Shown: piece by piece, positions 25,620 through 50,648 of the stretch
Layout: each line of letters starts with the position of its first letter
Numbering within the stretch: the stretch's first letter is position 1
The notes under the pieces: model-generated
The model's input: the letters and a program-made list of their open reading frames with translations, nothing else
The model's database searches: none
What the model was told of the DNA's origin: nothing
Program-made: the position numbers and the translations under genes
DNA from: Apiospora phragmitis
Taxonomy: Eukaryota; Ascomycota; Sordariomycetes; Amphisphaeriales; Apiosporaceae
Length of the DNA stretch: 64,000 bases
Direction: 5' to 3'
NCBI GenBank assembly: GCA_038363925.1
Contig: JAQQWL010000009.1
Location: 372,001-436,000, forward strand

Positions 25620-26202
25620 TGTTACGACCCGACCTAACCATACGGCTAAGAACCTTACTTACCGGTACGGAATTATAATACCCCGACTAGGCTACGATAT
25701 TATAGCTATAAACCGTACCGCTAGCTATACTAATATAAGCCTAGATTTTCCTTAATAACGAGCAATGGCGATAGCTATTAGATCACGTGACGTAACGAAC
25801 GATTAGGGGAGATCACTAAGTATTATAAAGTATAATTAAGGGAGATTATTAAGCATCGTAAAGCATGATTAGGGGAGATCGTTAAGTAATAACGATTAGT
25901 GAAGGAGAGATTAGATATATAAAAATGAACGATTCTTTATATATTTTATATAGATACTCTTTATTTTAATAATTAATTTAAATATTAATTTAATTTATTA
26001 ATAAAGTAAATAGTTTTAACGACTTTATTATAAATACCTTTAATTTTATATACTTTAGTTACCTTTATTTTTGCGGCTATTATATATTATATTTATAAAA
26101 GTGGATTTTTATTATATATTTAAATACTCTTTTATATTATTAAATATAAACCCTAGTACGTTCTACTAGGTTTTTTTTAAAACTTAAATAGCGTTCGTTA
26201 TA
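25620..26202 (+). repeat. 5' LTR of outer element
   Basis: 583 bp, TGTTACGACCCGACC start (barely RIPed at the first bases) to GCGTTCGTTATA end. A variable region at 25,800-25,915 holds about three copies of a GATTAGGGGAGATC-type unit. Confidence 0.9.
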
Positions 26203-26269
26203 TTTTAATTATTTTTATTCTTACGAGTTATTACTTAAAGGTTTAAGTAATAATATTTATAGGAACTAT

Positions 26270-27751
26270 GTTTACGCCTGGACCTAATAATACCCCTCGC
26301 TATAAGAAGGCCTTTGCTACCGCCGCTAATACCTTTTACCGAGATCTTACTATAGAGGTAGATAGCGACGATAACGACGACGGCCTTACCCGATAGGCGT
26401 TAGCTAAACGAATTAAAGAATTTAAGCAAGAGAGCGCTAATTATTAATACTATTACGCTAAGTTCGAAAAGGAACGTAACGAACTCTTAACTAAAAATAC
26501 TTTAAGATAAATACTAGATATTAATAAGCTACGTAAAAAAGTACGCCTCCTTCGTACCGCCGCCAATATTATTTAAACCTTTATTACTTTTAAAAGAGGT
26601 ATAAAAATTAATACCTTAATAGCTTTCGATAGGATAAGTAGGAATTTCCGCGGATTTCTTATTTAAGTTAAAGCTTATTAACGGTTTTACGAAGAAATAT
26701 TTTAAAATACTACCTAATAAGTTATCCACGCCGCCTCGTTTTTTAAAAGCAAGGTACTCGCCTAGTTTAAACCTTACTTAAACGAATTAATAAAAAATAA
26801 TTAGTAAGTTAAACTATACCGCGTAAAGGTATAACGAATTTTTAAAAGTTACGATAGCTTCGAACAAGCTTTTAAATTACTTTTTTTAAGACCTTAACGA
26901 GAAGCGACAAATAGAAAGAGAATTAGAAACTTTTAAATAAAAAAGATTAGCCGTTTTTTATACCGTTAAATTCCGACGTATTATAACTCGATTAAATTAT
27001 ACCGAAGCTATAAAGATTATAATATATTATCGAGGGTTAAAAGAAGATATTAAGGACGAACTTAGCCGGCTTAATACCCCCGATAATTTCCTTTCGTATA
27101 TAGAACTTATTATTAAGATTAATACTTGTATATATAAACGACGCCGCGAGAAACAAGGCGGATAATAACGATAGACTAGTCGAGTCTAAACTAATATAAG
27201 ACGACCACGTTACTATAATAGCATGTTATTAAAGAATAGTACGGCGTATAACTATTATAGTAAATTTATAAACCTCGACGCTACTAAATACGATAAGTAT
27301 AATAAGAAATAGAGCGTTATTTATTATAATTATTAAAAATAGGGACACTTCGCCCGAAATTATCGATCTTTAAAGAAGGATTTTTAAAAAGTCCCAGATA
27401 GGCGATAAATTAATATTACTAGTAGTTGACTAACCCTTATAACTATTAAGGGAAGTAGCGCTAATAATATATTAAACGTACCTTACGGTAGCCTATTTTA
27501 AATAGTTTACTATAATAATAGTTACTACGATTATTTAATAAATAAAGAAAGGAAGAGATAGTTTTTTTAAAAACTTTAAATAGTAAAGTATTACGTATAC
27601 CTTTACGATAATATAATAATAACTTAATTATAATAAAGAAAGTAATAAAGATAATAACGGAAATAAAAACCTAAAAAACCGCCTAGTCCGTAATAAGCGA
27701 CGATTAAACGACCTTAGACGGCTTATTAGGCTACTTACGCTAGAACTCGCT
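26270..27751 (+). pseudogene. RIPed gag of outer element with mutated zinc knuckle
   Basis: From the ATG at 26,270 region the frame reads FTPGPNNTPRYKKAFATAAN and continues with acidic and helical sequence broken by stops at Trp/Gln codons. At 27,315-27,371 the frame gives YYNY, two stops and GHFARNYR, clearly a CCHC zinc knuckle (CxxC-GHFARxC pattern) whose cysteine codons were changed to tyrosine codons by G-to-A mutation. It is interrupted at 27,752 by the middle element. Confidence 0.8.
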
Positions 27752-28377
27752 TATTACGACCCGACTTAATCATACGGCTAAGAACCCTACTTACCGGCAC
27801 GGAACTATAATACCACGGCTAGGCTATAATACTATAGCTATAAATTATACCGCTAATTATATTAATATAAATTTAAACTTATTTTAACGACGAATAACGA
27901 TATTACTACCTCGCCCGGCGATAAAACGAATACGCCTAAAGGCGACGGCGATAATTACCGGATTACGTGACTTAATAAACGCTTAGGTGAGATTATTAAG
28001 CAGCGTAGAGTATAATTAAGAGGGATTATTAAGTAATATAAAGTATAATTAAGAAAGATTATTAAGTAATAACGATTAATAAAGGAAGGATTAAATATAT
28101 AATTATAAACGTTTTCTATATATTTTATATAAATACTTTTTATTTTAATAATTAATTTAAGTATTAATCTTAACTTATTAATAAGGTATATTACCTTAAC
28201 GATTTTATTATAAATACTTTTAAGTTCTATATTTAATTACGATTAAATTACGGTTATTATTTATTATATTAATAAGCGACCACTTATTACACGTTTAAAT
28301 ACTTTTTCGTATTATTAACATAAACCCCCGTATATTCTACTAAGGTTTTTATTAAACCCTTAATAGCGTTCGTTATA
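27752..28377 (+). repeat. 5' LTR of middle element
   Basis: 626 bp, TATTACGACCCGAC start to GCGTTCGTTATA end. Its variable region (GCCCGGCGATAAAACG, 27,898-28,075) matches only the LTR at 43,695. Confidence 0.9.
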
Positions 28378-28439
28378 TTTTAATTACTCTTATTTTTACG
28401 AGTTATTACTTAAACCTTCGAGTAATAATTTTATAAGAA

Positions 28440-30270
28440 ATATATCTACTTTAAGAAGTAACGCTCCTCGCCACGGCAAAGATATTACTCGACCTACCTT
28501 TAATATAAAGGTCGAGGATAATAATAACGAAAACGTCCTTATTAACTTAAACGAGCTGGTTAAATAGTTTAAGCGACTTTAATAAGCGAACGTTAATTAT
28601 TAATACTATTATACTAAGCTCGAGAAGGAGCGCGACGCGTTCCGGGTTTAAACAGCCTTTAAATAAACGATAGACAATATTAACGAGCTTCGCAAGAAGG
28701 TTCAACTCTTACGAACTACTATTAATATTATTAAAACCCCTGTCGTACTTAAAGAAGGGGTTAAGATTAACGTACTAATATTATTCGATAAGACGAGCGG
28801 GAACTTTCGAAGATTCCTCGTTTAAGTTAAAGCCTATTAACGATTTTACGAGGGAACGTTTAAAAACCTAACTTAAAAAGTTATTTATACGGCCTCTTTT
28901 TTTAAAGGAAAGGCTTTTTTATAGTTTAAACCTTATTTAAACGAACTTATAAAACGTAATTAATAAGTTAAATTATACCGCGTCGAAACTTAGTAAATTT
29001 TTAATAATTACGATAATTTCGAGGACATTTTTAAATTACTTTTCTAAGATTTTAACGAAAAACGATAAGCCAAAAAGGAACTCGAGTATTTTAAGTAAAA
29101 GGGATTTATAATAATATATACCGTAAAGTTCCGACGTATTATAACTCGTTTAAATTATATCGAAACTATTAAAATTATAATATATTATCGAGGGCTTAAA
29201 AAGGAGGTTAAGGACAAGCTTAATCGATTAAACGCCCCGATTACCTTTTTCGCGTATATAGAACTTGCTATTAAGATCGATACGCGTTTATACGAACGAC
29301 GCCGCGAGAAGTAAGGCGGATAACCCCGGTAAAGCGAACAAACTAAGGTTAATACAAGACGATTATATAAATAGGTTAATACTTAAACTAAAATAATTAT
29401 TATATATAAATATTATAATAAATTTATAAACTTTAATATTATTAAATATAATAAGAACGATAAAAAATAGAATATTATTTATTATAATTATTAAAAAAAG
29501 GAATATTACGTTAAAAAATACCGAAAGTTAAGGAAAATATTTTAATGTGTTTTAAAAGGACGATAAGTTAACGTTACTAAGAATAAAGCCACCTTTGTGA
29601 GGGCTATTAAAAGAAGTAGTGTTAGCGATACGTTAAACGTGCTTTACGGCAGCTTATTTTAAATAGCTTATTATGATAACGGATATAATATATACTTAAC
29701 GGATAAGGAAGGTACCGGATAGTTTTTAAAGGCTTTAAAGGGTAAAAAGAAACTACGACCGGGCTTTCGTAGTAATTAGCTAAGAACTTACGTTCGCGTA
29801 TACCTTAAAGGCTAACGATTTTAATAACGACAAAGAAACGGTTAAATAAGGATAGTAAACCGGCGACTCTTAACGGTTAATCGAGATACTTATAAACGAG
29901 CTTATAAACGAAATTATTAAGTTAAAGGATTTGAGAGTTAACGAATAGCTAGTTATTTTAAGTATTCCTTACCTCGATTTAAAGTATATATATTAAGTAT
30001 TTATTACGGCTAGGTTTATTTAAAAAGTTATTAATAATTACGCTATAAGTAATAACCTCCGTATTATTTTTATAAGCGAAGTATATTTTATTTTTTTATA
30101 AATCTTATACGTATATAATGCTTATATAGAATACTTCGCGGAGAAACTCGAGAACGAATAGATTTTTTAATAGATCGGTAAACGAGTTATTATACGACTA
30201 TACCCGGACTACGTAATCGGGAAGGTTAAAACGACGATCCCGGACGGACGTCGAGTATATTTATTAGTAT
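28440..30270 (+). pseudogene. RIPed gag of middle element
   Basis: Translates in pieces similar to the outer gag (for example AARRREKQGG-like basic run near 29,300 and the Lys/Tyr-rich stretch that replaces the zinc knuckle near 29,460-29,525), with many stops. Interrupted at 30,276. Confidence 0.6.
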
Positions 30271-30275
30271 AAAAA

Positions 30276-30893
30276 TATTACGACCTAGCCTAATCATGCG
30301 GCTTAGACCTATAATTCACCGGTATAGAACTACTATACCCCGATTAGGCTATAATATTATCGATATTTATAAAACCGTTAGCTATATTAATATAAACTTA
30401 CTTATATTTCGTAATTAACCGCCGCTTAATACGATACCGCCCCCGAATAGTTATAAGACGGATAAATATCCCTGTAAAAAAAAGCTAAAAGCGGAGGTCA
30501 CGTAACGGATTTAGGGATCTAGGACAGATCCTAAGATCTCGCGCCGGATTTAGAAGATCGGGGCAGATTTACGAGATTTAAAAAAATTAGTAAAAAAGGG
30601 ATTAAATATATAATTACGGACGTTTTCTATATATTTTATATAAATATATTTTATTTTAATAATTAATTTAAATATTAATTTAATTTATTAATAAAATATA
30701 TTATTTTAACGATTTTATTAAAATATTTTTTAATATATTTTAATTATTTTTTTTATTTTTATAATTATTATATATTATATTAATAAAAGCGGACTTTTAT
30801 TATATATTTAAATATTTTTTCGTATTATTAAATATAAACCTTTCGGTACGTTTTATTAAGTTTTTATTTAAACTTTTAATAACGTTTGTTATA
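30276..30893 (+). repeat. 5' LTR of inner element
   Basis: 618 bp, starts TATTACGACCTAGCC and ends ACGTTTGTTATA; the variable region at 30,495-30,575 is shared with 37,944-38,560. Confidence 0.9.
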
Positions 30894-31883
30894 TTTTAAT
30901 TACTCTTATTTTTATAAATTACTACCTAAACCCTTAAGCAATAGTACTTATAGGAACCATATCTACACCTGGACCTAATAACACCCCTCGCTACGGGAAG
31001 GCTTTTATTCCTATCGTAAATACCCCTTAGCGAAACCCCGCTATAAAGGTATATAGCGATAATAATAACGACGGCCTTACCTAATAAGCGTTAATTAAAC
31101 GAATTAAAAAATTTAAGTAAAAAAGCGCTAATTATTAATATTATTACGCTAAGCTCGAAAAAGAACGTAACACCTTTTTATACGGGAAAACCTAAAATAA
31201 ATACCCGATATCGATAAGCTACGCGAAGAAGTACGACTCTTCCGTACCGCCGCTAATATTATTTAAACCCTTATCGCCTTAAAAAAAGGGATAAAGATTA
31301 ATTTATTTACGCTATTCGACGGGACGAGCGGGAATTTCCGAAGATTCCTCGTTTAAATTAAAGCTTATTAATAGTTTTATAAAGGAATATTCTAAAACCT
31401 TACTTAGCGAGTCGTTTACGCCGCCTCGTTTTTTAAAAATAAAATACTCGCTTAATTAAACCTTACCTCAACGAACTCGTAAAAAAGGATTAGTAAATCG
31501 AACTATACCGCACGGAGGTATAACGTATTTTTAAAAGTTACGATAGCTTCGAGGACGCCCTTAAGTCACTTTTTTAAAACCCCAACGAAAAACGATAAGT
31601 AAAAAGAGAGCTTAAAACTCTTAAGTAAAAAGGATTAGCCGCCTTTTATACCGCCGAGTTCCGATATATTATAGCTCGATTAAATTATACCGAAACTATT
31701 AAAATTATAATATATTATTAAGGATTAAAAAAGGATATTAAAGATAAACTTAGCCGGCTTAATATTTTTAATAACTTCTTTTCGTATATAGAGCTTATAA
31801 TTAAGATCGATATTTATATATATAAACGACGCCGCGAAAAATAAAGCGAATAGTAATAATAAATTAATTAAATCTAAACTAAT

Positions 31884-32511
31884 TGTAACGAACGGCTATC
31901 GGGGTCCAAAAGAAACCTCGTAGACGTGCCTGGGGTTTATGTTGGCTAAGACGAGAAAGTACTTGAACGTGCAGACGAGTGCGTCCGTCTGATACAATGG
32001 GCAATATCCTCAACTGATCGTAGAACTTGATGGAAGGTGCAATAGGTTCGTCAAGGCAATGTGCCTCACCAATGTGTTAGATTGATGCTTAGATTGATCG
32101 CTGAAGTAGAGAGTGTCTATATGAAGTACATAGGAAAGGTTCATCGTTATATATCCAATTTCTCCTTCCGCGATCCGTGGGCTCACTTCCTGCCTACCGG
32201 TCGATCACGCTTTGCTCTGGGTGATCCTCGACCGGATCACGTCTGTTGGTCCCCTGCGATCACCCTTGGGTCCCGGTGATCAGTCACGTGATGCGTTCGT
32301 CGTGATCTGTCAATGCGGTCGTATGTGTCCATCCTTCCTTGGTTGTAGTTGGGTGTGGTAGAAGGTGCTTGAGTTGGTTGTTGCTCGTAATACCGATCGT
32401 GGTGAGTTTTGCACGATTGCTTGGCTCGGTCGAGCAGGTACGCGCGCGGGGCATTGTGATGCCGTTCCGTAGAAGTGGGTCTGGGCCGCATGATTAGGCT
32501 AGGTCGTAACA
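31884..32511 (-). mobile_element. Un-RIPed reversed solo LTR, TSD CTAAT
   Basis: 628 bp in reverse orientation from TGTAACGAACGGCTATC to TAGGTCGTAACA, flanked by CTAAT at 31,879-31,883 and 32,512-32,516. Composition is normal, with many CpA/TpG, against a fully RIPed host. The two open frames inside it (32,061-32,279 and 32,237-32,512) are just a consequence of normal composition; LTRs of this family encode no protein. This is the youngest identifiable event in the island and shows the unmutated family LTR. Confidence 0.93.
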
Positions 32512-33879
32512 CTAATATAGAACGATTACATTATTATTATAATATATAGCTTAAAAATATTACCGCGTATAATTATTATAGTAAACCTATAAATCTCGAC
32601 GATATTAAATACGATAAAAACGATAAAAAATAAAGTATTACTCACTATAATTATTAAAAAAAAAGTATTACTTTCGAAAATACCGAGCCCCGAAAAAAGA
32701 TTATCGGAAAGTCCTTAAAGGATAAAATATTAACGCTATACGAAGCGAAGACACCCCTATACTAATTATTAAAGAAAGTAACGTTATTATTAATTACGGT
32801 AGCCTATCCTAAATAACTTATTACGACAATAAGTACACCTCTTACTTAGCAAATAAAGAAAAAACGGAATAGTTCCTTAAAGCCCCAAGAAGTAAAGGTA
32901 ACTATAACCGAAGCCTTATAATAATAAGCCGAGAGCGCGCCCCTATATATAATAAAGGAAACGATTTTACCGAAAATATTACGAGCTAATTAAAATAATC
33001 GACGGGCTACGAACGCCTAGTCGGTATATTAATAAACGAGCTTATAAAAGAAATTACCGAATTTAAAGATTTTAAAAATAATGAATAGCTAGTTATTTTA
33101 AGTATCCCCTGCCTAGATTTAAAATACCTGCGCTAAATACTTATTACAGTAAGATTCGATTAAGGAATCCGCGGTAATTACGTAATAAATAATAACCCCC
33201 GAATCTCTTTTATAAGCGAAGTATATTTTACGCTTTTATAAATTTTATACCTACACGACGCTTATATAAAATATTTCGCGAAGAAATTTAAAAACGAATA
33301 ATTTTTTTAACGAATAAATGAACAAGTTATTATAAACCCATACCTTAATTATATAATCGGGAAAATTAAAACATCGATTTTTAATAAATAACACGCGTAC
33401 TTATTAATATAAAAAGACTTAAAATAGCTACGAAAATATTACGTAGAAGGACGGGACTAGAAGGAGTATTCCGAGGACTAATACCTCGAATACGCCTAGG
33501 AAAAATCGCGAGCCTATAAACGTTTAAAGAAAAATACTTTATACTTTTAGAACATATAGGCGTATACTCGATAAAAGGATCTTTTTATTATAATTAAGAA
33601 ATTATATAGTGCCTATAAACTTTAATAAACCTAATAAACTTTTAAATTACCCGGAAAACCCGAATCTTAAGTATTAAGGATAATATTATATACGGGGAGG
33701 GGTATAAAAACACCTTTACCGATATATTAAAAAACTCTTTATAAAAAAAGAAAGGAACGATAATAAAGATAAAACGGTCGATCGTAGAGACTTTATTACT
33801 TACTTAAAAAGATATCGGTTAAGAAATAAATACCGCCGAATATAAAAAGATAATACTAAGCGGACTAAAAAAAGTCCTT

Positions 33880-36800
33880 ATATTAAATAATGGATAAATA
33901 AAATATTTATAAGTATATTATTTTAATAATAAACGTAAAAAGAGTTTATATTAAAGCGTTACTCGATAATAAAGCGTAAGGAAATTATATTTTATTACGA
34001 ATCGTTAACCGCCTAAAACTTAAATAATAAGAGAAAAACGCCCTATATTAATTCAAAACCGTCGATAAAGGATTTATAACTTATAATAATAAAGAAGTAT
34101 GGAAGGAAGTCGCGAACCTTCTGGTCGATATCGAAGAATATTATAAACGAATTACGTATAATATTAAGGATGTCGCAAAATACGATATAATTTTAAAAAT
34201 ACCCTAATTACGGGTAAATAATTTTAAAATTAATTAAAGAATAGGTTAATTTTAATAAAATATATTAAAAAGAGGTTTAATTAATAAATAACGGTTTAAA
34301 AAACAACCTTTTAATAAACTTAAAATATTTAAAATATATATTATTATTAAAGAATTTAAGTTAAACGTTATAACGATTATATTAAAAAAGTATCGGTAAT
34401 TCGAAGCTTTTTTTAATAAAAAACTAAAAATAGGCTTACCGCTTTATATATAATAAAATTACGAAATACTCTTTAAAATTACGAAATACCCTTTAAAACA
34501 TAGGAAAGAACCCTTATTTATATTTATATATAAACTTAATTAAGAGCACGAATAAGCCTTAAAGGATATATTACGAAAAACCCTCGAAAAAGGAGTTATA
34601 CGACCATCCATATCGCTAGCAGGCTTCCCCATCCTCTTCGTTCTAAAAAAAAGCAAGGACGGGAAACCTAAGTAGCGTATATATATCGATTACCGAAAGC
34701 TTAACGAAATTACTATTAAGAACCGATACCCCTTACTTTTAATTAGCGACCTACGGAATAAATTATTACACGTTAAAATCTTTATAGCGCTTAACCTCCT
34801 TAATATATATAACCTAATCTGTATGAAGGAAAAAAAAAATAAAAAACCGCGTTTTAAACGAAATATAAATATTTTAAGTATTAAACTATGCCGTTTAAAT
34901 TAATTAACACGCTAATTAGCTTTTAATTAATAATTAATTATATTTTATACGAATACCTCGATAAGTTCGTTATAGTATACCTCGATAATACCTTTATTTA
35001 TTCCGAAAATAAAGAATAATATAGAAAGTACGTAAAGTTAATACTTTAAAAACTATAAAACGCTAATCTATTAATAAACCTAAAAAAGAGCGAGTTTTAT
35101 TAACGAATAGTTACGTTTATAAAATACGTAATATCCCCCGAAAAAATATAAATAAAGTAATTAAAAATCGTAATAGTTAAGGAGTAGCCTACGCCTATAA
35201 ACGTTACGGAAATTAAATCCTTTTTAAAACTAATTAATTATTATTAGATCTTCGTCCCCGGATTTAATAGGTTAGTAATACCTTTTACGAACTTAATAAA
35301 AAAAGACGAACTATTTAGATAAACGGAAGCGGAAAAAACCGCCTTTTAAATAATAAAAGAGCGAATCCTTAGCGAACTAATACTTTACGTAGCAGATCTA
35401 GCCAGACCTTTTAAGGTTGAACCGACGTATCGAGCTATACGATTAAAGGGTAACTAAGCTAACGGGATAATAACGGAAAGTCGTACCTTATCGTATTTTT
35501 TTCGAAAAAACTAAATAAACCCGAGCTTAATTACTAAATTTACGATAAAGAATTAATAGCTATTATTAAGGTATTCGAAAAATAGAAACATTATTTTAAC
35601 GGAATAATAAAGCTAATAAAGATTTATACTAATTATAAAAATCTTACGACGTTTATTACTATAAAAGAATTAAATAAACGATAAGTACGATAGTTTAAAT
35701 TTCTTTTAAAATTTAACTTCGTTATTATCTATTAAAAAGGTAGCGAAAACGGTCGCGCCAACGTATTAAGTAAACGACCCGACTATTAAAAAAGAAATCT
35801 TATTTAAAACTAGAACTATTTTTAAATAGGATTAAAACGGTAACCTTATATTATTACGGTAATTAAACGCTATAAATCACGTTTAATATAATAATAAATA
35901 AATTACTAAGTTTAAATAATTAAATAAAACCCTCAATTTTATTAATTACGCCAAGGATTACCTCGAAAACCGTAATAGTCTCATCTTTTATCGAAATAAA
36001 ATCTATATCTTTAAGCAATACCGGGAAAACTTTATTAAGGACTTCCATAAACACCCCGCGCATAGATACCAAAGAGTATTCAAGACCTAAAAACGAATTA
36101 CTAGGCAATTCGATTATAAAAACCTCAAGCTAACCGTAGCCAAGGTTATTAATAAATACGACCTATATAATAAAGCTAAGTCCGCACGACACCGACCGTA
36201 TAAAGAACTCCAGCCCATACCGCCACTAAATAGGGGCATAAAAAACGATCGTACTTAACTTCGTCGTTAAGCTATCCCTATTAACGGAACTATTAACTAA
36301 GGTCGAATATAATAATATATTAATAATTACGAACAAGTTTACGAAATATATTTACTTCTTATTATATAAAGAGTTTAACGATATTAACGACTTTATATAT
36401 ATATTCCTTAAAACTATCGTTAATTAATACGGGTTACTAGAAACGATTATTTTTAACCGAAATAAGCTATTTATCGCTAAGTTTTAAAAATCGCTTATAA
36501 TATAATTAGGCGTAAAACATAAGCTATTTATAACCTATTACTTATAAACGAATAAATAAACCGAATAAATAAACTAAACCTTAAAATAATACCTATAATA
36601 TTATATTAATTATAAATAAAATAACTAAGTAATATTATTACTTATAGCGTAATTCGCGTATAATAGCGTAAATAACGAAACTACACGTATTTTATTATTT
36701 CGAATAAATTACGGGTACGACCTAGAGATTACTAAACAACCCCTAAAAAGAGAGCTAGCACTAATCGCAACTATATAAATCGGAAAATTAAAAAAACTTT

Positions 36801-37210
36801 AAACTACTCCTATAATAAGACCTTACTTTCCTTTAAGAACGGATAAAAAAGTACGCTAATAAAACTAAATTAAAAGGATTAACCTTTAAAGAGGGAGAAA
36901 AAGTTTATTTTTATAACGAAATATTAAAACTAAACGACCTAGTATAAAATTATAAAAATTATTTTAAAAACTAATTATTAATTATCGCTATTTAAAATAA
37001 TACGGATATACCTTATATTTTATGTATTATTACTCGAAATAGCATTAAAAAAAGTACTTATTAATATATAACTAGAAGTCGAAACAGATTAATACGAATA
37101 TAAAATCGAGAAAATTATTAATAAACGAAAAAAAAATAAAACTTTTAATACCTCGTTTAATAAAAAGGATACTTATTAAAAAATAATACCTAAAAATTTA
37201 AAAAATATCT
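33880..37210 (+). pseudogene. RIPed pol of inner element: protease, RT, RNase H, integrase, chromodomain
   Basis: In order: protease region (ALLD, then GNYILLRIV, about 33,955-34,010) with its DSGA site altered; RT (about 34,560-35,100) with LEKGVIRPSISLAGFP, then IDYRKLNEITIKNRYPL, and the catalytic YLDD changed to YLDN in FVIVYLDNTFIYSEN; RNase H (about 35,480-35,790) with YDKELIAIIKVFEK and YTNYKNLTTFITIKELN; integrase (about 35,930-36,800); and a C-terminal EYKIEKIINKRKK at 37,095-37,135, matching a chromodomain start. Stops fall at Trp/Gln codons. The chromodomain defines the chromovirus branch of Ty3/Gypsy. Confidence 0.88.
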
Positions 37211-37339
37211 AAAAAACGTTATTAAAAAGCTTTAAAAGTTTAAAAACTAACCCTAAACTCGGCTAATAATAACGGCTTTAATAGAACGTTAAAGTACACC
37301 TTGTCCTAATTAAAAAAAAAGCTTAATAATAACGTAGGA

Positions 37340-37590
37340 GTGACTTTAGGCGACGGTTCGGCCGCCGCCTTACGACGAGCCTCTCCTCCTCGGCCTCCTT
37401 ATATTCGATACGCTTTAGCTCTTCTATACTCGAAATACCGCGACGAATTGTACGCATCGTCTTTTTAAACTAAAGCTTTTTTTACTTCCGAAGCAGCCGG
37501 ACCTTTGCGGTAGCCCGCTTTAATTCCTCCTTCGCCGCGTTTAAATTACTTTTTAAGCGAGCATAATTATCGCTAATAACCCGTAATTAA
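37340..37590 (-). pseudogene. Antisense coiled-coil ORF remnant, inner element
   Basis: The minus strand reads YARLKSNLNAAKEELKRATA, then KVRLLRK, MRTIRRGISSIEELKRIE, then KEAEEERLVVRRRPNRR. This is a small helical protein with the LRKQ and RRG.SS.EEL motifs seen in short uncharacterised fungal proteins that accompany transposons. It lies between the end of pol and the 3' LTR, opposite to gag-pol. Few stops remain on this strand compared with pol. Confidence 0.65.
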
Positions 37591-37943
37591 GTAATAAAAA
37601 AGCCTTATATATCGTACCTCGATTAATTATATTTAATATATAATTTATAACGAGAGAAATTAAGCGAAAAAACTTTATAATTCGGAAAGCTACGGAACTC
37701 GTAATAAAAATAAAAAGGTATAATAATAAACCGTTAAAAAATAAGGCTTAAAACTTTATTATAACGATTAATTTTTATATATTTAAAAGTATAACGTTTT
37801 TTAATACGACTAAATATTATAATAAATAAATATTATAATAAAAATAAAAAGAAAGGAATTTATTAAAAACTTAAAAAAATAAAGAAATAAAAGTATTTAT
37901 AAGACTTAACGCTTTGAAAATAAAATAATTAAAAAAAGGATAA

Positions 37944-38560
37944 TATTATAACCTAGCCGAATTATACGGCTTAAACTTATAATTCACCGGTACGGAACTA
38001 CTATACCCCGATCAGGTTATAATATTACCGATATTTATAAAACCGCTAATTATATTAATATAAACTTACTTATATTTCGCGACTAACCGCCGCTTAATAC
38101 GATACCGCCCCGGACGGCTATAGGACGGATAAACATCCTCGTAAAGAAAAGCTAAGGGCGGAGGTCACGTAACGGATTTAGGGATCTAGGACAGATCCTA
38201 AGATCCCGCGCCGGATTTGAAGGATCGGGGCAGATTTACGAGATTTAAAAGAATTATTAAAAAAGGGATTAAATATATAACTATAAATATTATTTATATA
38301 TTTTATATAAATATTCTTTATTTTAATAATTAATTTAAATATTAATTTAATTTATTAATAAAATATATTATTTTAATAATTTTATTAAAAATACTTTTTA
38401 ATATATTTTAATTACTTTTTTATTTTTACAGCTATTATATATTATATTAATAAAAGCGGACTTTTATTATATATTTAAATACTTTCTCGTATTATTAAAT
38501 ATAAACCCTTCGGTATGTTTTACTAGGTTTTTATTTAAACCCCTAATAGCGTTCGTTATA
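37944..38560 (+). repeat. 3' LTR of inner element
   Basis: 617 bp, TATTATAACCTAGCC to GCGTTCGTTATA, followed by AAAAA. Confidence 0.9.
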
Positions 38561-39918
38561 AAAAAGATTTATAGTAACTACGATAATATTACTTAAAAAG
38601 ACGGGATTAAAAGGATACCTCGAAAATCGATACTTTAAGTACGCTTAAAAAAAATCGCGGGCTTATAAACGCTTAAAATAAAGTGCTTAATACTTTTAAA
38701 ATATATAAGCTTATATTTAATAAAGGAACCTTTTTAGCCCGGTTAAAAGTATTAATAAAGCCCGATAAACTTAATAAACCTTTAAATCCCCGGACGAACT
38801 AGAATCCTAGGTATTAAGGCTAGTATTATATACGGGAAAAAGATTTGATACACCTCCCCTAGTATATTAAAAAGCGCCTTATAAGGAAAGAAGGAGATAA
38901 TAACGATAGGAGGATCGATCGTAAGAATTTATTACTTACGTAAAACTATACCGGTCGGGAAATAAATACCGCTAATTATAAAGGGATAATATTAAGCGAG
39001 ATTAAAACGGTCTTTATATAAACTTTAAATAATTAAAGCCTTTATAAGTATATTATATTAATAATAAACATAAAAAGAGTTTATATTAAAGCGTTATTTA
39101 ATAACGGAACGTAGAAAAACTATATATTATTACGAATTATTAATAAGCTTTAATTAAATTAAACGGAAAAAAATGCCTTATACCGACTTAAGACCGTTAA
39201 TAAAGGACTTATAATTTACGATAATAAAGAAGTACGGAAAGAAGTCGCGAACTTTCTAATTAATATTAAAAAACGTTATAAATAAATTACGTATAATATT
39301 ACGGATGTCGCAAGATACGATATAATTTTAAGGATATTTTAGTTATAGGTAAATAATTTTAAAATTAATTAAAAAATAGGTTAACTTTAATAAAATATAT
39401 TAAAAAGAGGTTTAATTAATAAATAACGGTTTAAAAAAGGCTTTTTAATAAACTTAAAGTACTTAAAGTATATATTATTATTAAAGAGCCTAAACCGAGC
39501 GTTATAACGACTGTATTAAAAGAGTACCGGCAGTTTATGAACCTTTTTAATAAGAAACTAAAAACAGGTTTACCGTTTTATATATGGTGAAATTACGAAA
39601 TACCCTTTAAAAAAGGGAAAAAACCACCCTTTATACCTATATATAAGCTTAACTAAAAATACGAAGTAATATTAAAAGAGTATATTACGGAAAACTTCGA
39701 AAAAGGAGTTATACGACTATTTATATTACTAGCCGGATTCTTTATTTTTTTTTATTTTAAAAAAAAGTAAAAACGGGAAGCTTAAATAATATATATATAT
39801 CGATTATAAAAAGCTTAACGAAATTATTATTAAGAACCGATACCTTTTATTTTTAATTAACGACTTATAAAATAAATTATTACACGTTAAAATCTTTATA
39901 ATACTCGATCTTCTTAAC

Positions 39919-40556
39919 TATTACGACCTAGCCTAATTATACGGCCTAGACCCACAAATCGTCGGCACGGAACTACGATGCCCCGACCAGGCTACGATAC
40001 TACCAGCGTCGACCGAACCGCCAGCTACACCAACATGAACTCACCCATACTCCGCGATCGACCGCCCAGTACGACGCCACCTCGGCAAGACCATGGGACG
40101 AACGAAGCGCCCACGAAGGCCAAGGACGAACGTCACGGGACCGCGGCGTCCCGAGTGAGCCCGCTGGAATGGATCACCGTGATCCAAGGAAGGGATCACC
40201 GTGATCCAACCACGGGATCACCGTGAGCCAACAGGTGATCCAAGGAGATCAGTAAAGGAGGGATTGGATATATAACTACGAACGTTTCCTATATATTTCA
40301 TATAAACACTTTTTACTTTAGTAATTAATCTAAATATTAATTTAACTTATTAGTGAGGCATATTACCTTAACGATCTATTACGAATAACTTCATCTTCTA
40401 CACCTTACGTTATATTTATTCCTACGGCTATTGCATATTATATCGATAGAAGCGGACTTCTATCGCATGTTCAGATACTCTCTCGTATTGCTAAACATAA
40501 ACCCTTCGGTACGTCTTACCAGGTTTCTATTTGGACCCCTGATAGCGTTCGTTACA
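39919..40556 (+). mobile_element. Partly RIPed solo LTR inserted in RT of the middle element, TSD TTAAC
   Basis: 638 bp from TATTACGACCTAGCC to GCGTTCGTTACA, flanked by TTAAC at 39,914-39,918 and 40,557-40,561. RT coding is continuous across it (LDLLN | VYNLIRIKKGKE). The first half has normal composition, the second is RIPed. At 40,172-40,237 it has GGATCACCGTGATCC twice and a third partial copy, a palindrome repeated in tandem. The frame at 39,978-40,226 is not a gene. Confidence 0.92.
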
Positions 40557-42989
40557 TTAACGTATATAACTTAATCCGTATTAAAAAAGGAAAGGAATTA
40601 AAAACCGCGTTTCGAACTAAGTATAAATATTTTAAATATTAAGCTATACCGTTTAGTTTAATTAATATACTAGTTAACTTTTAATTTATAATTAAATACG
40701 TATTACGAGAATACCTCAATAAGTTTATTATAGTATACCTTAATAATATCCTTATTTATTCCGAAAACGAAGAATAGTATAAAGAGTATATAAAACTAAT
40801 ACTTTAGAAATTATAAGATATTAATTTATTAATTAACTTAGAAAAAAGCGAATTTTATTAAACTTAAGTCACCTTTATAAGATACGTTATATTCCGGGAA
40901 AAATCCGGATAAAATCCTTTAAAGTAATAATAATTAAGGAGTAATTAACGCCTATAAGCGCTATAAAAGTCAGATCCTTTTTAAGATTAATTAACTATTA
41001 TTAAATTTTTATCCTTAAATTTAATAAAATAGCGACACTTTTAACGAACCTAATTAAAAAAACACCTTATTTATATAGATTAATAAAAAAAGAAAATCTT
41101 TTTAAGTTATAAAAAAGCGGATCGTTAATAAACTAATACTTTATATAGCGAATCTCGTAAAACCTTTCGAAATTAAAACCGACGTATTAAACTATACGAT
41201 CAGAGGTTAACTAAGCTAGTAAAATAATAATAAAAAACTATACCCCGTCGTATTTTTTTTAAAAAAATTAAATAAACTAGAACTTAATTATTAAATATAC
41301 GATAAAGAATTAATAGCTATTATTAAAACCTTCGAAAAATAGAAATATTATTTTAATAAAACGAAAAAATTAATAAAGGTTTATATTAATTATAAGAACT
41401 TAACTACGTTTATTATTATAAAAAAATTAAATAAGTAATAAATATAATAGTTTAAGTTCTTATTAAAATTTAATTTCGTTATTATTTATTATAAAAATAG
41501 CGATAACGGAAAAGCCGACGCTTTTAATTAACGATTAAATTATTAAGAAGAAATCTTATTAAAGACCTAGACTATCCTTAGGCATAATAACGATAATAAC
41601 CTCGCACTATTACGACACTTATACGTAACTAACCACGTTTAGCACGACGACAAATGGGTTGCACGCTTTAAGGAATGCTACGAACAGATGAACATAGCCA
41701 CCTTACGACCGCCGTACGGAGTATCGAGAAACGGGTTAGTGTATTACTAAAGCAAGATCCTCATTCCCGAGTAACATTAACGGGAATTCGTCCAGGAATT
41801 TCACTTATACCTCGCACATAGATACCAAAGAGTATTTAAAACGTAGAAACGAATTACACGGTTATTTAATTACGAAAGTTTAAAGGACTAAGTTATAAAG
41901 GTTATTAGCGAATACAACCTTTATAATAAGGCTAAAACCGCACGATACCGACCGTACAGGAAATTACAACCTATACTACTATTAAATAAAACCTAGAAAA
42001 TAATTATATTAAACTTTATTATTAAATTACCCCTATTAAAAGAATTATTAATTAAGGTCGAATACGACAGCATGTTAATAATTACGAATAAGCTTATAAA
42101 GTATACCTGCTTCTTATCGTATAAAGAATTTAACGATATTAACGACCTTACGTATATATTTCTCCCGAACTATCGTTAACTAGTACGGATTACTAGAAAT
42201 AATTATTTTTAACCGAGATAAGCTATTTACCGCTAAGTTTTAAAAATTACTTATAATATAACTAGGCGTGAAATATAAGTTATCTACGGCTTATTACTTA
42301 TAAACGAATAAATAAACCGAATAAATAAATTAAACCTTAAAATAATACTTATAATACTACGTTAATTACGAATACAATAACTAAGTAAAGTTATTATTTA
42401 TAGCGTAATTTATATATAACAACGTAAATAACGAAACTACGCGTATTTTATTATTTCGAATAAATTACGGGTACGACCCGGAAATTACTAGATAACCCTT
42501 AAAAAAAAAGCTAGTACTAATCGCGACCATATAAGTCGAGAAATTTAAAAAACTTTAAACTACTTTATAATAAGACCTTACTTTTCTTTAAGAACGAATA
42601 AAGAAATACGCCGATAAAACTAGATTAAAAAAACTAACCTTTAAAAAAGAAGAAAAAGTTTACCTCTTATAACGTAATATTAAAACTAAACGACCTAGCG
42701 ATAAACTAGATTTTAAAAAGATCGGACTATTTAAAATCATAAAAATTATTTTAAAACTAATTATCGATTATTACTACTTAAAATAATATAAATATACCCT
42801 ATATTTTATATTTTATTACTTAAACTAACCCTCGAAAACATAAAAATCGATATATAATTAATAATCGAAACAGATTAGCACGAGTATAAAATCGAAAAGA
42901 TTATTAATAAACGAAAAAAAGGACGAGGCTTTTAATACCTCGTTTAATAAAAAAAGTACCTATTAAAGAATAATACCTAAGAACTTAAG

Positions 42990-43690
42990 AAATACCTAAC
43001 GAATACTATTAAAAAACTACGGACGTTTAAATAATAACCTCCGAAATCGGCTTAAAAGAAAAATCGGTCGCGTTTAAATTAATAAAACCGAAGCTTCTTT
43101 AAGTTTAAACGGCTATAACGGCCTTAAACTCGCAACGTTCTTATTTTTCTAATTCGTTTAAAAAACGTAAACTACGTTATATTAATTTAACGCCTTAAGT
43201 ACGAACTATTTCTTTTTATTTATAAAAACGAATAAAATAAGCGACGGCTTTATTAATTTAGCGCTAAAGCTTTAAAAAATAGGCCTCCGCGGCGGACTCT
43301 TCTCGAAACAAGCGGTTATACTCGTTCTAAACACGCCGTAAAAAAAATAATAAAGTCCTAGTACCGTTATATATATAACCGGCGCGAATATATTCTTTAT
43401 ACTTATTAACACCTTTTATTATTATATAAAACTACCTTGTTATAAAATAGCGGCTATAAAATATAACTTTGAAGCTAAACTTAGAAAAAGCCTCGACAAA
43501 ATCTATATAATAAACGGTAAAAAAACGATTAAACTTAGCTCGAGATTTTTTAATACGACTATTTATAATAAACATATATTATAAATAAAAACGATAAAGA
43601 AAGAAAAACTTACTACCAAGCTATAATAATAGGCGGTTAAGATATTTATACGGTTTTACGCTTTAAAAATAAAATAATTAAAAAAAAAGG
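42990..43690 (-). pseudogene. Antisense ORF region, middle element
   Basis: Same location relative to pol and 3' LTR as the antisense ORF of the other copies. Around 43,265-43,325 the minus strand matches the outer element's SREESAAEARFLEL segment, with extra stops. Confidence 0.45.
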
Positions 43691-43694
43691 ATAG

Positions 43695-44290
43695 TATTAC
43701 GACCCGACTTAATTATACGGCTAAGAACCCTACTTACCGGCACGGAACTATAATACCCCGGCTAGGCTATAATATTATAGCTATAGACCGTAGCGCTAAT
43801 TATATTAATATAAATTTAAACCTACCTTAACGACGAATAACGACACTACCACTTCGCCCGGCGATAATTACCGGATCACGTGACCTAACGAACGTTTAAG
43901 TAAGATCACTAAGCAGCATAGAGTATAATTAAGAGGGATTATTAAATAGCGTAAAGTATAACTAAGAAAGATTATTAAATAATAACGATTAATAAAAAAG
44001 GGATTAAATATATAACTACGAACGTTTTTTATATATTTTATATAAATACTCTTTACTTTAATAATTAATTTAAGTATTAATTTTAACTTATTAATAAAGC
44101 ATATTACCTTAACGACTTTATTATAAATACCTTTAAATTCTATACTTAATTACGATTAAATCACGGTTATTATTTATTATATTAATAGGCGACCACCTAT
44201 TACACGTCTAAATACTCTCTCGTATTATTAATATAAACCCCCGTACATTTTACCAAGGTTTCTATTAGACCCCTGATAGCGTTCGTTACA
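43695..44290 (+). repeat. 3' LTR of middle element
   Basis: 596 bp, TATTACGACCCGAC to GCGTTCGTTACA; variable region as in 27,752-28,377. Followed by TCGCT. Confidence 0.9.
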
Positions 44291-44295
44291 TCGCT

Positions 44296-47200: not shown

Positions 47201-48130
47201 AACTATTAATTAAAATTAATTACGATAATATCTTAATAATTACGGATAAATTCATAAAGTATACCTACTTTTTACTATATAAAGAATTTAGCGATACTAG
47301 CGATTTAGCTTATACCTTCCTCTATACTATTATTAATTAATATAGATTATTAAAAACGATTATCTCTAATCGAAATAAGCTATTTACGGCTAAGATTTAA
47401 AGGTTACTTATAATATAACTCGGTATTAAGTATAAATTATTTATAATTTACCACCTTTGAATAAATAAATAAACCGAAAAAATAAACTAAACTTTAAAGT
47501 AATACCTACGTTATTATATTAATTACGAATAAAATAACTAGGTATAATTATTATTTATAATATAATTTACTTATAATAGTATAAATAACGAAACTATACG
47601 TATATTACTATTTCGGACAAATTACGAGTATAACTTAGAAATTATTAAAACACCTTTAAAGGGAGAGTTAATACTTATCGCGATTAGATAAGTTCAAAAA
47701 TTAAAAGAATTCTAAATAATATTATAATAAAACCTTACTTTTTTTTAATAACGAATAAAGAAACACGCCGACTAGACCAGGTTAAAAGGATTAACCTTAA
47801 GAGAAGGAAAAAAAATCTACCTCTTACGGCGAAATATTAAAACTAAACGACCGAGCGAAAAATTAGACTTTAAAAAGATCGGACTATTTAAAATCGTAAG
47901 AATTATTTTAAAAACTAATTATTAATTATTACTATTAAAATAATACGGATATACCTTATATTTTATATTTTATTACTTAAACCAGCGGCCGAAGAAACCT
48001 TAATTAATACGCGGCTAAAAGTTAAAACGAATTAGCACGAGTATAAAGTCGACGAGATTATCGATAAAAGAAAAAAAAAGCCGAGGCTTTTAATAGTTCG
48101 TCTAATAAAAAAGGTACCTATTAAAAAATA
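44296..48130 (+). pseudogene. RIPed gag end and pol of outer element
   Basis: Continues the outer gag after the middle insertion. Recognisable blocks include ALLDSGA-like protease (about 45,080-45,120), RT with IDY.KLNEIIIKNRYPLPL (45,790-45,845) and YLDNI.IY (46,075-46,105), RNase H (46,430-46,700), integrase (46,850-47,640). Stops are frequent. A short deletion near 46,310 removes the segment joining RT to RNase H (FVPGF region present at 35,255). Confidence 0.75.
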
Positions 48131-48199
48131 ATACCTAAGAACTTAAAAAACACTTAGCGAACGTTATTAAAAAACTACGGACGTTTAAATAACAACTTT

Positions 48200-48840
48200 A
48201 GGAATCGGTTCGAAAGAAAAGTCGGTCGCGTTTTAATTAATAATATTAAAGCCTCCTTAGGCTTAAACGGCTATAACGGCCTTAAACTCTCGACGCTCCT
48301 GCTCTTTTAACTCGTTTAAAGAATATAAGCTACGTTATACTAATTTAACGCCCTAAGTACGAGCTATTTCTTTTTATTTAAAAATAAATAAAACGAGCGA
48401 CGGCCTCGTTAATCTAGCGCTAAAGCTCTAGAAAGCGAGCCTCCGCGGCGGACTCTTCTCGAGATAAACAGTCGTGCTCGTCTTATATACGCCGTAAAGA
48501 AAATAACGGGACCCTAATACCATTATACGCGTAACTAATGCGAATACACTCTTTATATTTATTAACGTTTTCTATTATTATATAAAGCTACCTTTTTACG
48601 AAATAACGACTATAAAGCATAACTTTAAAACCGAACTTAAAAAAAGCCTCGATAAAATCCGTATAACGAACGATAAAAGAACGATTAAGCTTAGTTCGAG
48701 ATTTCTCAACGCGACTATTTATAATAAATATTTATTATAATAAAAGTAATAAAGAAAAGAAGAAAACTTATTACGTATACGAAATAGGCGGCTAGGATAC
48801 TTATACGGTTTTACGCTTTAAAGATAAAGTAATTAAAAAA
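48200..48840 (-). pseudogene. Antisense ORF region, outer element
   Basis: The minus strand at about 48,475-48,370 reads LSREESAAEARFLEL, then INEAVARFI after stops at presumed Gln codons. It is the least damaged stretch of this antisense frame in the outer copy and matches 43,265-43,325. Confidence 0.5.
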
Positions 48841-48849
48841 AGAGGATAG

Positions 48850-49431
48850 TGTTATAACCCGACTTAACTATACGGCTAAGAACTTTACTTACCGGTATAG
48901 AACTATAATCCCCGACTAGGCTACAATACTATAACTATAAACCGCACCGTTAGCTATACTAATATAAGCCTAGACTTTTCTTAACGACGAGCATTAGCGA
49001 TAGCTACTAGATCACGTGACGTAACGAACGATTAGGGGAGATTACTAAGTATTATAAAGTATAATTAAAAGAGATTATTAAGTATTATAAAATATAATTA
49101 AAAGAGATCGCTAAGTAATAATAATTAATAATAGAGAGATTAAATATATAAAAATAAACGATTCCTTATATATTTTTTATAAATACTTTTTACTTTAATA
49201 ATTAATTTAAGTATTAATTTAATTTATTAATAAAGTAAATAATTTTAACGACTTTATTATAAATACCTTTAAGTCTACGCACTTTAATTACCTTTATTTC
49301 TACGGCTATTATATATTATATCGGTAAAAGTGGACTTTTATCGCACGTTTAAATACTCTCTTATATTATTAAATATAAACTTTAGTACGTTTTACTAGGT
49401 TTCTTTTAAAACTTAGATAACGTTCGTTATA
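48850..49431 (+). repeat. 3' LTR of outer element
   Basis: 582 bp, TGTTATAACCCGAC to ACGTTCGTTATA, followed by ACGAG. Confidence 0.9.
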
Positions 49432-49711
49432 ACGAGCTAGTTATAAATTAACTCTCGTTTTAAGCTTAATATTATAATTATAAATATATTAATACCGTTA
49501 AAGTTTTAATATAAAATTAAAATTATTAACGATATTAATTCGATATTTTTCGATTATTAAAAATATTTAATCAATAATAATTAAAAGATTTTATAATAAG
49601 TGAGGTTAAAAAAAGGCTACTAGTTAATTACGATTAAGCGATTTAAATTAATATTATATATAATCGGTTTAAAACACTAAAAAACATCACGAGATACGAA
49701 CTAACCAACCA
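49432..49711. other. RIPed spacer right of the nest
   Basis: AT-rich DNA that was continuous with 24,631-25,619 before the outer insertion. No recognisable coding. Confidence 0.4.
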
Positions 49712-49818
49712 CTAACCAACTAACGCCCTTTTGATCAACCGTTTTGCCAACTAACCAGCGCAGAATCGGCTGCAGGGGTAGTAATAACCAGCCAGCGGTA
49801 CGCTGGTTAGTTTGTTGG
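49712..49818. repeat. Island right-border repeat with an inverted pair
   Basis: 49,712-49,740 matches the left border (16,121-16,157) in the same orientation. Next to it CTAACCAGCG at 49,751-49,760 is inverted at 49,801-49,810 (CGCTGGTTAG), with flanking CCAA/TTGG also matching with a small gap; a CCAGCG-GTA-CGCTGG palindrome is at 49,792-49,806. Normal composition resumes here. It looks like the terminus of a mobile element abutting the hydrolase pseudogene. Confidence 0.45.
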
Positions 49819-49825
49819 TTGAACG

Positions 49826-50648
49826 GCAACACTGCCGGGGCCTGGACAGCACCGGCCGCATATCACAAGCTGCTCAGTATCTTAGAAGCTAAAGGTTTCA
49901 CCGTCCACGCCCCGGCTCTGCCCATAAACAACGGCCACCGACCGCCCGACTCCTCTTTCGACGACGACGTGCAAGCTGTACGCCGGATTGTACAGCGATT
50001 GGTCGACGATGGCCAGGAGGTCCTCATGTTATGCACTCGTACGGAGGCGTCGTAGGCACGACGGCTCTCCTGGGCCTGACCCGAAAGGATCGCGAGGCAG
50101 AGGGCCTACCGGGTGGTGTGGTTCAGCTGCTCTACGCTGCCACCTTCATGCTCGCTCTCAACCAGAACATCCAAACTGTCGTGCGGGCGGTCAGCCTCCC
50201 AGGCCGGGACGGGCTGGTTTGGTTCGCCGACGACGGCACATGGTTTTTTACCGACTTTGTCTTGTTTCTTTACCAAGACCTGGCCCCGGACGACCAAGAG
50301 CAGTTGCACGGGCTGGAATGGGGCAACACGGCCATCTTGACGGGGAACACGACCTACGAGGCGTGGAAAGACGTGCCGACACTCTATGTCCGCACGACGG
50401 AGGATCGGTGGCTGCCTCCCGCGTTTCAAGACTTCTGCGTCAAGAATGCAGTCGATGCCGGGGTCGCTATACGTACGGTGGCGCTTCGTTCCGGCCACTC
50501 GCCGTATGTAAATTTTGCGACGGAGTTGACTGAGATGGCTGTTCAGGATTCGCGATCCGGTGTAATAGGTTGTGGACTGTGCCCGGGGAAGCGAACTATG
50601 TGCGTCATGATGCCGCCTCCACTGCTAGCCAGGAACAAAAGAAAGTGA
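49826..50648 (+). pseudogene. Alpha/beta-hydrolase, 5'-truncated and frameshifted
   Basis: Similarity to a fungal alpha/beta hydrolase begins at WTAPAAYHKLLSILEAKGF (about 49,842) and continues FTVHAPALPINNGH, then DDDVQAVRRIVQRLVDDGQE. At about 50,025-50,032 the frame slips by one base and goes on with MHSYGGVVGTTALLGLTRKD, the nucleophile elbow (GHSYGG-type, Ser in HSYGG), and RTTEDRWLPPAFQDFC and RSGHSPYVNFA, which holds the catalytic His. The first strand and oxyanion segment are missing: sequence upstream of 49,830 is the border repeat. The frame ends at 50,648. The truncation is real; the frameshift may be a sequencing error. Substrate unknown. Confidence 0.8.

What the first reader, a model, noticed from the sequence alone, without database searches (positions are those of the whole stretch)
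25620..49431. Three-level nested chromovirus retrotransposons with intact target-site duplications
Three Ty3/Gypsy chromoviruses sit inside each other like Russian dolls: outer 25,620-49,431 (TSD ACGAG), middle 27,752-44,290 inserted in its gag (TSD TCGCT), inner 30,276-38,560 inserted in the middle one (TSD AAAAA). Each TSD is read on both sides, each LTR pair shares its own variable region, and excising each insertion rejoins the host coding motif. The nesting gives a strict relative age, so the same window records RIP on insertions of known order.
Basis: seen in the sequence. Interest (0 to 1): 0.85.

Follow-up and report, generated by a model that had tools for sequence, protein, structure and literature searches.

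The report
Nested fungal retrotransposons with mutation-spared insertions
A 34-kb patch of a fungal chromosome is a stack of mobile elements inserted one inside another and then riddled with the fungus's own defence mutations; the three-level nest is real but ordinary for fungi, and its most telling part, missed at first, is a single leftover element end that sits nearly untouched inside the mutated stack.

Summary
The host is Apiospora phragmitis.

The outer element sits in a dispersed repeat, and two solo LTRs lie inside the stack: A (31,884-32,511, TSD CTAAT) in the inner element, B (39,919-40,556, TSD TTAAC) in the middle one. That gives five layers. An older element and two more solo LTRs lie upstream.

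The hope that the nest records RIP by age fails: the three elements are equally RIP-saturated, and LTR transversions (5, 2, 4) do not rank them.

Solo A is essentially un-RIPed. Its sisters, the LTR pair of a C4 element, differ by 129 and 163 changes from C/G in A to T/A, 0 and 1 in reverse, and 2 transversions each, over 628 bp. Of 17 LTRs found by an un-RIPed R or U5 motif, none belonged to a full-length element. Solo LTRs escaping RIP is already published for Podospora (PMC10787394); solo A favours LTR-LTR recombination before RIP over later gene conversion.

New member of a known kind; modest interest.

The parts
49432..49840 (.). host dispersed repeat, right part; left of the outer element 24,688-25,614, and further pieces at 17,860-18,159 and 16,595-16,694 (the last two matched in L030 only); outermost layer
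   Evidence: uninterrupted paralogues L028, L029, L030 across the outer insertion; upstream pieces in L030
25615..25619 (.). TSD of outer element, ACGAG (second copy 49,432-49,436)
25620..49431 (+). outer LTR retroelement (own sequence about 7.27 kb): LTRs 25,620-26,202 and 48,850-49,431; internal 26,203-27,751 and 44,291-48,849
   Evidence: LTR pair, TSD, three empty-site paralogues
27752..44290 (+). middle LTR retroelement (own about 7.6 kb) inserted in outer, TSD TCGCT 27,747-27,751 / 44,291-44,295; LTRs 27,752-28,377 and 43,695-44,290
30276..38560 (+). inner LTR retroelement (own about 7.65 kb) inserted in middle, TSD AAAAA 30,271-30,275 / 38,561-38,565; LTRs 30,276-30,893 and 37,944-38,560
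31884..32511 (-). solo LTR A, essentially un-RIPed (GC 0.51), inserted in the inner element; TSD CTAAT 31,879-31,883 / 32,512-32,516
39919..40556 (+). solo LTR B, inserted in the middle element; U3 un-RIPed, R-U5 partly RIPed; TSD TTAAC 39,914-39,918 / 40,557-40,561
37125..37277 (+). chromodomain remnant of inner element (corresponding: middle about 42,882-43,034; outer about 48,040-48,192), tryptophan positions now stops
   Evidence: DNA alignment to genomic copies that match PF00385, and translation with stops shown
34676..34900 (+). reverse-transcriptase fragment of inner element (open piece, 75 aa)
   Evidence: matches Ty3 RT 4ol8 (E 1.1e-4) and 7q5b (E 4.9e-4); no Pfam hit at E<=0.1
26941..27162 (+). 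capsid-like fragment of outer element (corresponding middle fragment 29,099-29,311)
   Evidence: PF19259 Ty3_capsid E 0.0012 and 0.0021, below the curated cut-off
18160..24630 (+). older degenerate element E0 with 5' LTR from about 18,160 and truncated 3' LTR from about 24,263
   Evidence: no TSD established
23210..23848 (-). solo LTR D (RIPed) inside E0, TSD TCGCT 23,205-23,209 / 23,849-23,853 (read by eye from the printed strings)
16695..17866 (-). solo LTR C, truncated at its U5 end and split by SINE-like repeats; U3 un-RIPed, R-U5 RIPed; no TSD established

Best explanation
Successive insertions of one high-copy Ty3/Gypsy chromovirus superfamily into a pre-existing repeat of Apiospora phragmitis, each new copy landing in an earlier one, then C:G>T:A hypermutation of the full-length copies by repeat-induced point mutation (RIP). 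Order shown by nesting: host repeat, outer, middle, then inner and solo B (their mutual order unknown), then solo A in inner. Solo A began as a complete element whose two LTRs recombined, leaving one 628-bp LTR. It lost its internal region before RIP reached it, and the remnant was too short, or its partners already too diverged, to be recognised. Shown: anatomy, order, RIP status, near-restriction of un-RIPed R-U5 and internal sequence to solo or deleted copies, one-way differences from sister LTRs of longer elements. Inferred: recombination before RIP, short length as the cause of immunity, chromodomain guidance of self-nesting.
For: Nesting, TSDs and empty sites. Chromodomain, RT and capsid remnants. 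RIP: CpA+TpG 11.6-15.0 per kb against 128-133 in the flanks. Family size: a degenerate R-region motif has 749 hits, with 1 in the reversed control; its un-RIPed form has 14. Of those 14, 11 have exact TSDs hard against the LTR, one (L091) a TSD with one mismatch, one (L082) none, and one (L085) is followed by about 0.5 kb of un-RIPed gag-side sequence and an LTR tail, its ends TSD-like with one C/T difference. An independent U5 motif was un-RIPed in 5 of 98: solo B, two already in the set (L082, L084), and two new ones (L094, L095) with exact TSDs and no internal sequence next to them; L094 is partly RIPed elsewhere. Control: of the first 30 of the 749 LTRs in contig order, none un-RIPed, 24 have element-internal sequence on the expected side, against 1 of 14 un-RIPed ones (Fisher p = 6e-6). 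Sister test: A versus the two C4 LTRs, 628 sites, no indels, 129 and 163 changes from C/G in A to T/A in the sister, 0 and 1 the other way, 2 transversions each; CpA hit at 81% and 95%, CpG at 7% and 16%. One C4 LTR abuts the 3' internal end; the other has one 86-bp match to gag-side sequence about 1.1 kb downstream, near the expected distance.
Against: RIPed LTRs without adjacent internal sequence exist too (6 of 30 controls), and solo D is RIPed, so being solo does not guarantee escape, or some solos form after RIP. U3 often survives in complete elements: 4 of 24 control LTRs with internal sequence keep U3 CpA+TpG above 70 per kb, and three 5' LTRs of the B subfamily (L024-L026) keep 64-76 per kb while their R-U5 has none; so the solo/complete contrast holds for R-U5 and internal sequence, not strictly for U3. 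Solos B and C likewise have intact U3 with RIPed or half-RIPed R-U5. Solo A could have arrived after its partners were already mutated, which needs no length limit. The motif counts miss clean LTRs: L020 is clean in both halves and lacks adjacent internal sequence but was not in either motif set (its TSD was not examined). RIP machinery was tested only as four loci matching PF00145 with no stop in the match; which one is the RIP enzyme was not tested.
Confidence: 0.85

Rival explanations
1. Solo LTRs form mainly from RIPed elements and later regain GC by gene conversion from un-RIPed copies (the second option left open in PMC10787394).
For: That paper names it for Podospora and cites LTR gene conversion in yeast. 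Several un-RIPed LTRs here have an un-RIPed U3 relative at 84-86% identity (L083-L090, L087-L089, L089-C, and L081-L088 over 134 bp), so it is not excluded for those.
Against: Solo A has no un-RIPed U3 partner of 100 bp or more among the other 15 U3 regions compared; apart from itself, the matches over its whole length were the RIPed C4 LTRs at 78% and 72% and a 66% match on C1 (40 of 89 candidates scored). Its differences from the C4 LTRs run almost purely one way. Solo B's clean relative L020 differs from it by 10 transversions in 318 sites, so it is not its source. Mosaic structure was not tested.
Confidence: 0.08
2. RIP has recently stopped in this lineage, so the youngest insertions of every kind are clean, and solo A is simply recent.
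For: Solo A is the top layer of the nest and clean.
Against: Recent full-length copies should then be clean too. None of the 17 LTRs with an un-RIPed R or U5 motif belongs to a full-length element. Of the RT matches listed all but 8 carry in-frame stops; those 8 were not typed, and 150 of 264 candidates were scored. The C4 sister, near-identical to A but for RIP-type changes, was heavily hit.
Confidence: 0.1
3. The nest is an assembly artefact of collapsed repeats.
For: High-copy, AT-rich repeats are a classic place for misassembly; no reads were available.
Against: Five exact TSDs at five junction pairs and contiguous empty sites in paralogues; each LTR pair has its own U3; contig of 3.5 Mb.
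Confidence: 0.03

Closest known systems
crapaud LTR retrotransposon of Podospora anserina (Westerberg et al. 2024, PMC10787394; outline and sections 3, 8, 11, 12 read)
   Same: LTR family with subfamilies that differ in U3 and share R-U5; RIP hits LTRs of full copies but mostly not solo or fragment LTRs; solo LTRs attributed to LTR-LTR recombination.
   Different: Different fungus; LTRs of about 0.57-0.73 kb rather than about 0.4 kb; here no un-RIPed full copy was found in the searches made, solos lie in a layered nest, and sister pairs give one-way counts.
AT-rich Gypsy islands of Aspergillus flavus (PMC9910759; passages read)
   Same: RIP-like mutated Gypsy elements and solo LTRs making AT-rich islands.
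   Different: The passages read say Gypsy LTRs gave results similar to the elements, that is RIP-like; they give no nest order.
Fungal Ty3/Gypsy chromoviruses such as MAGGY (recalled, not compared)
   Same: Chromodomain at the end of pol; tendency to insert in heterochromatin (recalled).
   Different: Clade placement was not tested; the coding regions here are broken by many stops.

Membership tests
Ty3/Gypsy LTR retrotransposon | paired direct LTRs with TG..CA-type ends and short TSD | tested here: met
   LTR pairs of 582-626 bp, 5-bp TSDs; some ends read TA, as expected from C:G>T:A change
Ty3/Gypsy LTR retrotransposon | Ty3-type capsid and reverse transcriptase | tested here: met
   RT piece of the inner element matches Ty3 RT chains at E 1e-4 to 5e-4; capsid pieces of outer and middle match PF19259 at E 0.001-0.002, below the curated cut-off
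Ty3/Gypsy LTR retrotransposon | integrase downstream of RT | tested here: inconclusive
   integrase-like pieces at 36,242-36,424 and 41,997-42,176 named by eye; no Pfam hit, no PF00665 hit in the window
chromovirus | chromodomain at the C-terminal end of pol, before the 3' LTR | tested here: met
   all three elements align at DNA level to genomic copies whose chromodomains pass the PF00385 cut-off; translation shows the remnants, stops included
RIP-affected DNA | C:G>T:A transitions with CpA preference and raised TpA/ApT | tested here: met
   TA/AT 1.40-1.52, (CA+TG)/(AC+GT) 0.12-0.16 in element internal regions; CpA 81-95% hit in the C4 sister LTRs
solo LTR from LTR-LTR recombination | single complete LTR flanked directly by a TSD, no internal sequence | tested here: met
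   A and B, D (by eye); of the 15 other LTRs with an un-RIPed motif, 12 have exact TSDs and 1 a one-mismatch TSD; C has no established TSD
RIP as a sexual-cycle process in this species | mutation in crosses, dependent on a RID-type methyltransferase | not testable with these tools
   only four PF00145 loci seen

The most novel reading that the evidence does not exclude
In this fungus, loss of the internal region by LTR-LTR recombination is effectively the only way R-U5 and internal sequence of this family survive RIP: each clean LTR is the early-collapsed sister of a copy that stayed complete and was destroyed, so clean-solo/RIPed-sister pairs act as natural matched controls that give RIP's context spectrum and the competition between recombination and RIP, in a nest of known order. 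(Odds lowered from 0.5 to 0.4 after one search showed half-spared U3 in complete elements.)
Probability: 0.4. Interest if true: 0.45.

Novelty: new member of a known kind. Interest (0 to 1): 0.3.

Why it matters
Nested RIPed retrotransposons are routine in ascomycetes. The gain is that a solo LTR with near-identical RIPed sister LTRs lets one read RIP's context preference and direction without inferring an ancestor, and bears on a question left open for Podospora: whether clean solo LTRs escaped RIP or were later repaired by gene conversion. Solo A favours escape.

Tried and rejected
Dating the three elements by LTR transversions: counts too small to rank them. RIP level as a clock: the three are alike. 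One large transposon with terminal inverted repeats around the whole block: best inverted match 38 bp at 79%, rejected. tRNA or Rfam identity for the SINE-like repeats: none found. Pfam domains on open pieces of RT and integrase: none. Un-RIPed full-length copy at C5 (L085): it proved to be a deleted copy. Two un-RIPed U5 hits as possible counter-examples: both are LTRs with TSDs and no internal sequence beside them.

Papers: PMC10787394 outline and sections 3, 8, 11, 12; passages only of PMC9910759, PMC5445492, PMC3562529, PMC3599309, PMC4352252, PMC9970103; all others seen only in search listings (one search listed none).
Full report
Check of the observation. The 5-bp direct repeats ACGAG, TCGCT and AAAAA flank the three elements exactly; at local base composition such a match has a chance of 0.24-0.7% each. 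In a tree of nine LTRs the pairs group as predicted (UFBoot 97, 97, 100), and they still do when bases are recoded as purine/pyrimidine, which ignores RIP-type changes, with weaker support (82, 66, 98; the middle pair has aLRT 95).

Empty sites. The outer element lies in a dispersed repeat. Three paralogues elsewhere in the genome (L028, L029, L030) match the left flank up to 25,610-25,612 and, within about 10 bp, go on into sequence matching the right flank from 49,432-49,440. The inner element interrupts the middle one at a point that is continuous in the inner element's own body (midL up to 30,238 and midR from 38,561 meet at inner 33,378/33,411). For the middle element in the outer one, no single alignment crosses the breakpoint; the distances on the two sides (164 + 368 bases) add up to the distance in the middle element's body (529), so the sites are contiguous by arithmetic. 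The solo LTR sites are likewise continuous in the other elements. Flanks were compared apart, not joined.

What was missed. Solo LTR A (31,884-32,511, reverse, TSD CTAAT) sits in the inner element, and solo LTR B (39,919-40,556, forward, TSD TTAAC) in the middle one. Upstream are an older degenerate element (18,160-24,630) holding a RIPed solo LTR D (23,210-23,848, TSD TCGCT, read by eye) and a truncated solo LTR C split by SINE-like repeats. Parts of the host repeat flank these as well, but only in L030, which has 358 and about 400 bases of its own between the matches, so empty sites are not shown for C and the older element. The layers are host repeat, outer, middle, inner, solo A; solo B lies beside the inner element inside the middle one.

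Host. A flanking aldo-keto reductase is 100% identical, over 73% of the query, to one of Apiospora phragmitis on a contig of 3,519,214 bases, the length of the window's own contig. The genome is 52.67 Mb in 19 contigs.

Identity of the elements. All three align to genomic copies carrying chromodomains above the Pfam cut-off, and remnants of that domain can be read in each, with tryptophan positions turned to stops. A reverse-transcriptase piece matches Ty3 and capsid pieces match Ty3_capsid below cut-off. Integrase was recognised by eye only; Pfam gave nothing for those pieces, nor for the RT piece. By eye, the catalytic YxDD motif of reverse transcriptase (recalled) is altered in all three.

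RIP. Element internal regions hold 11.6 (outer), 15.0 (middle) and 14.2 (inner) CpA+TpG per kb against 128-133 in the flanking genic DNA. Transversions between LTR partners are 5/582, 2/596 and 4/616; the intervals overlap. Neither measure recovers the order that the nesting proves.

Solo LTRs and RIP. Solo A has 140 CpA+TpG per kb, like the flanks. B has 112 in U3 and 60 in R-U5; C has 113 and 10; D has 31 and 10.5. A degenerate R-region motif occurs 749 times in the genome, its un-RIPed form 14 times, including A. All 14 were read with flanks: 11 exact TSDs, one TSD with a mismatch (L091), one without TSD (L082), and one with internal sequence (L085), which turned out to be an LTR, about 0.5 kb of un-RIPed gag-side sequence and an LTR tail, then RIPed DNA. 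In a second, U5-based pair of motifs 5 of 98 were un-RIPed: L082 and L084 already read, solo B, and two new ones (L094, L095), both without internal sequence beside them and with TSDs readable in the output (CCTTT and TAACG); L094 is partly RIPed outside the motif. That makes 17 LTRs with an un-RIPed R or U5 motif. The motifs are not exhaustive: L020, clean in both halves and without adjacent internal sequence, was in neither set.

Control. I classified the first 30 of the 749 in contig order, none of which has the un-RIPed motif: 24 have internal sequence on the expected side and 6 do not, against 1 and 13 in the un-RIPed set (Fisher p = 6e-6). An earlier, looser run of the same 30 gave 23 and 7. 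The control is one contig and 30 of 735, and the internal test rests on similarity to the window's elements.

Results against a simple solo/complete rule. U3 is spared more than R-U5 generally: 4 of 24 control LTRs with internal sequence, and 1 of 6 without, keep U3 above 70 CpA+TpG per kb; 5' LTRs L024-L026 of the B subfamily keep 64-76 per kb in U3 with none in R-U5. So survival in complete elements is partial in U3, while clean R-U5 was seen only in solo or deleted copies. Solo D and six control LTRs are RIPed without adjacent internal sequence.

Sisters. Solo A aligns without an indel to two LTRs on C4, 6.9 kb apart on one strand. One abuts 3' internal sequence; the other has one 86-bp match to gag-side sequence about 1.1 kb downstream. 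Against one, 129 of 131 differences are C or G in A and T or A in the other, with 2 transversions and none in reverse; against the other, 163 of 166, with 1 reverse and 2 transversions. With A as reference, CpA is hit at 81% and 95%, CpT at 45% and 61%, CpC at 29% and 32%, CpG at 7% and 16%. Solo B's U3 stands in the same relation to two 5' LTRs on C2 (L022, L023): 46 and 49 one-way changes, 2 reverse each, no transversions over 320 sites. Of the other 13 un-RIPed LTRs, near sisters appeared for two: L083 with an LTR on C1 held in overlapping loci L064/L065 (69 one-way, 4 reverse, 1 transversion) and L090 with one in L073/L074 (73, 0, 1), both LTRs being followed by internal sequence. The rest had none as close, but only held loci could be compared. 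L082, without TSD, is nearest to the inner element's own LTRs (62 one-way, 6 reverse, 4 transversions).

Interpretation. The one-way differences show that solo A carries almost no RIP damage relative to its sisters, and no clean donor for its U3 was found among the un-RIPed LTRs held or the scored genome candidates. As no full-length copy with clean R-U5 was found, the simplest account is that some new insertions collapse to a solo LTR before RIP, and the 0.6-0.7-kb remnant is not, or is poorly, recognised. For other solos, pairs of clean U3s at 84-86% identity exist, so gene conversion is not excluded there. PMC9970103 (introduction passage) reports reduced RIP below about 500 bp and almost none below about 200 bp in Neurospora; PMC10787394 section 3 gives about 400 bp with targets down to 150 bp. 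The LTRs here are somewhat longer.

Prior work. Westerberg et al. [quoted passage not shown] So the effect is known; the present case adds a second fungus, a nest of known order and sister-pair counts. Searches combining solo LTR with RIP terms returned 1, 8, 1 and 8 papers; I read passages of some and do not claim that nothing else exists.

Verdict. Observation confirmed and extended; interpretation partly supported; ordinary biology with one useful internal control.

Noticed in passing
16,297-16,421; 16,886-17,030; 17,243-17,388; 21,123-21,223; 21,453-21,574: Five copies of a short repeat; one carries a tRNA-like box (GCGCAGTGGTTAG, motif recalled), so probably a SINE; two of them split solo LTR C. 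No tRNA or Rfam call.
   Followed up: partly
23,205-23,209 and 27,747-27,751: Solo D and the middle element share the same TSD, TCGCT, preceded by AAC in both; could be chance or a target preference.
   Followed up: no
19,815-20,035: A GC-richer stretch inside the older element that by eye does not look RIPed; identity unknown.
   Followed up: no
16,695-17,866 and 39,919-40,556; also L024-L026: U3 is spared while R-U5, shared by the whole superfamily, is RIPed, in solos B and C and in some complete elements: a possible read-out of the copy number or homology length needed for RIP.
   Followed up: partly
L093:1-800 (G000:C5:2,228,400-2,232,400): Un-RIPed LTR with about 0.5 kb of gag-side sequence and an LTR tail beside RIPed DNA: an internally deleted copy that escaped.
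   Followed up: partly
L020 (G000:C13:2,746,377-2,749,688), LTR from about 1,499: A further clean LTR of the B subfamily without adjacent internal sequence, missed by both motif searches.
   Followed up: partly
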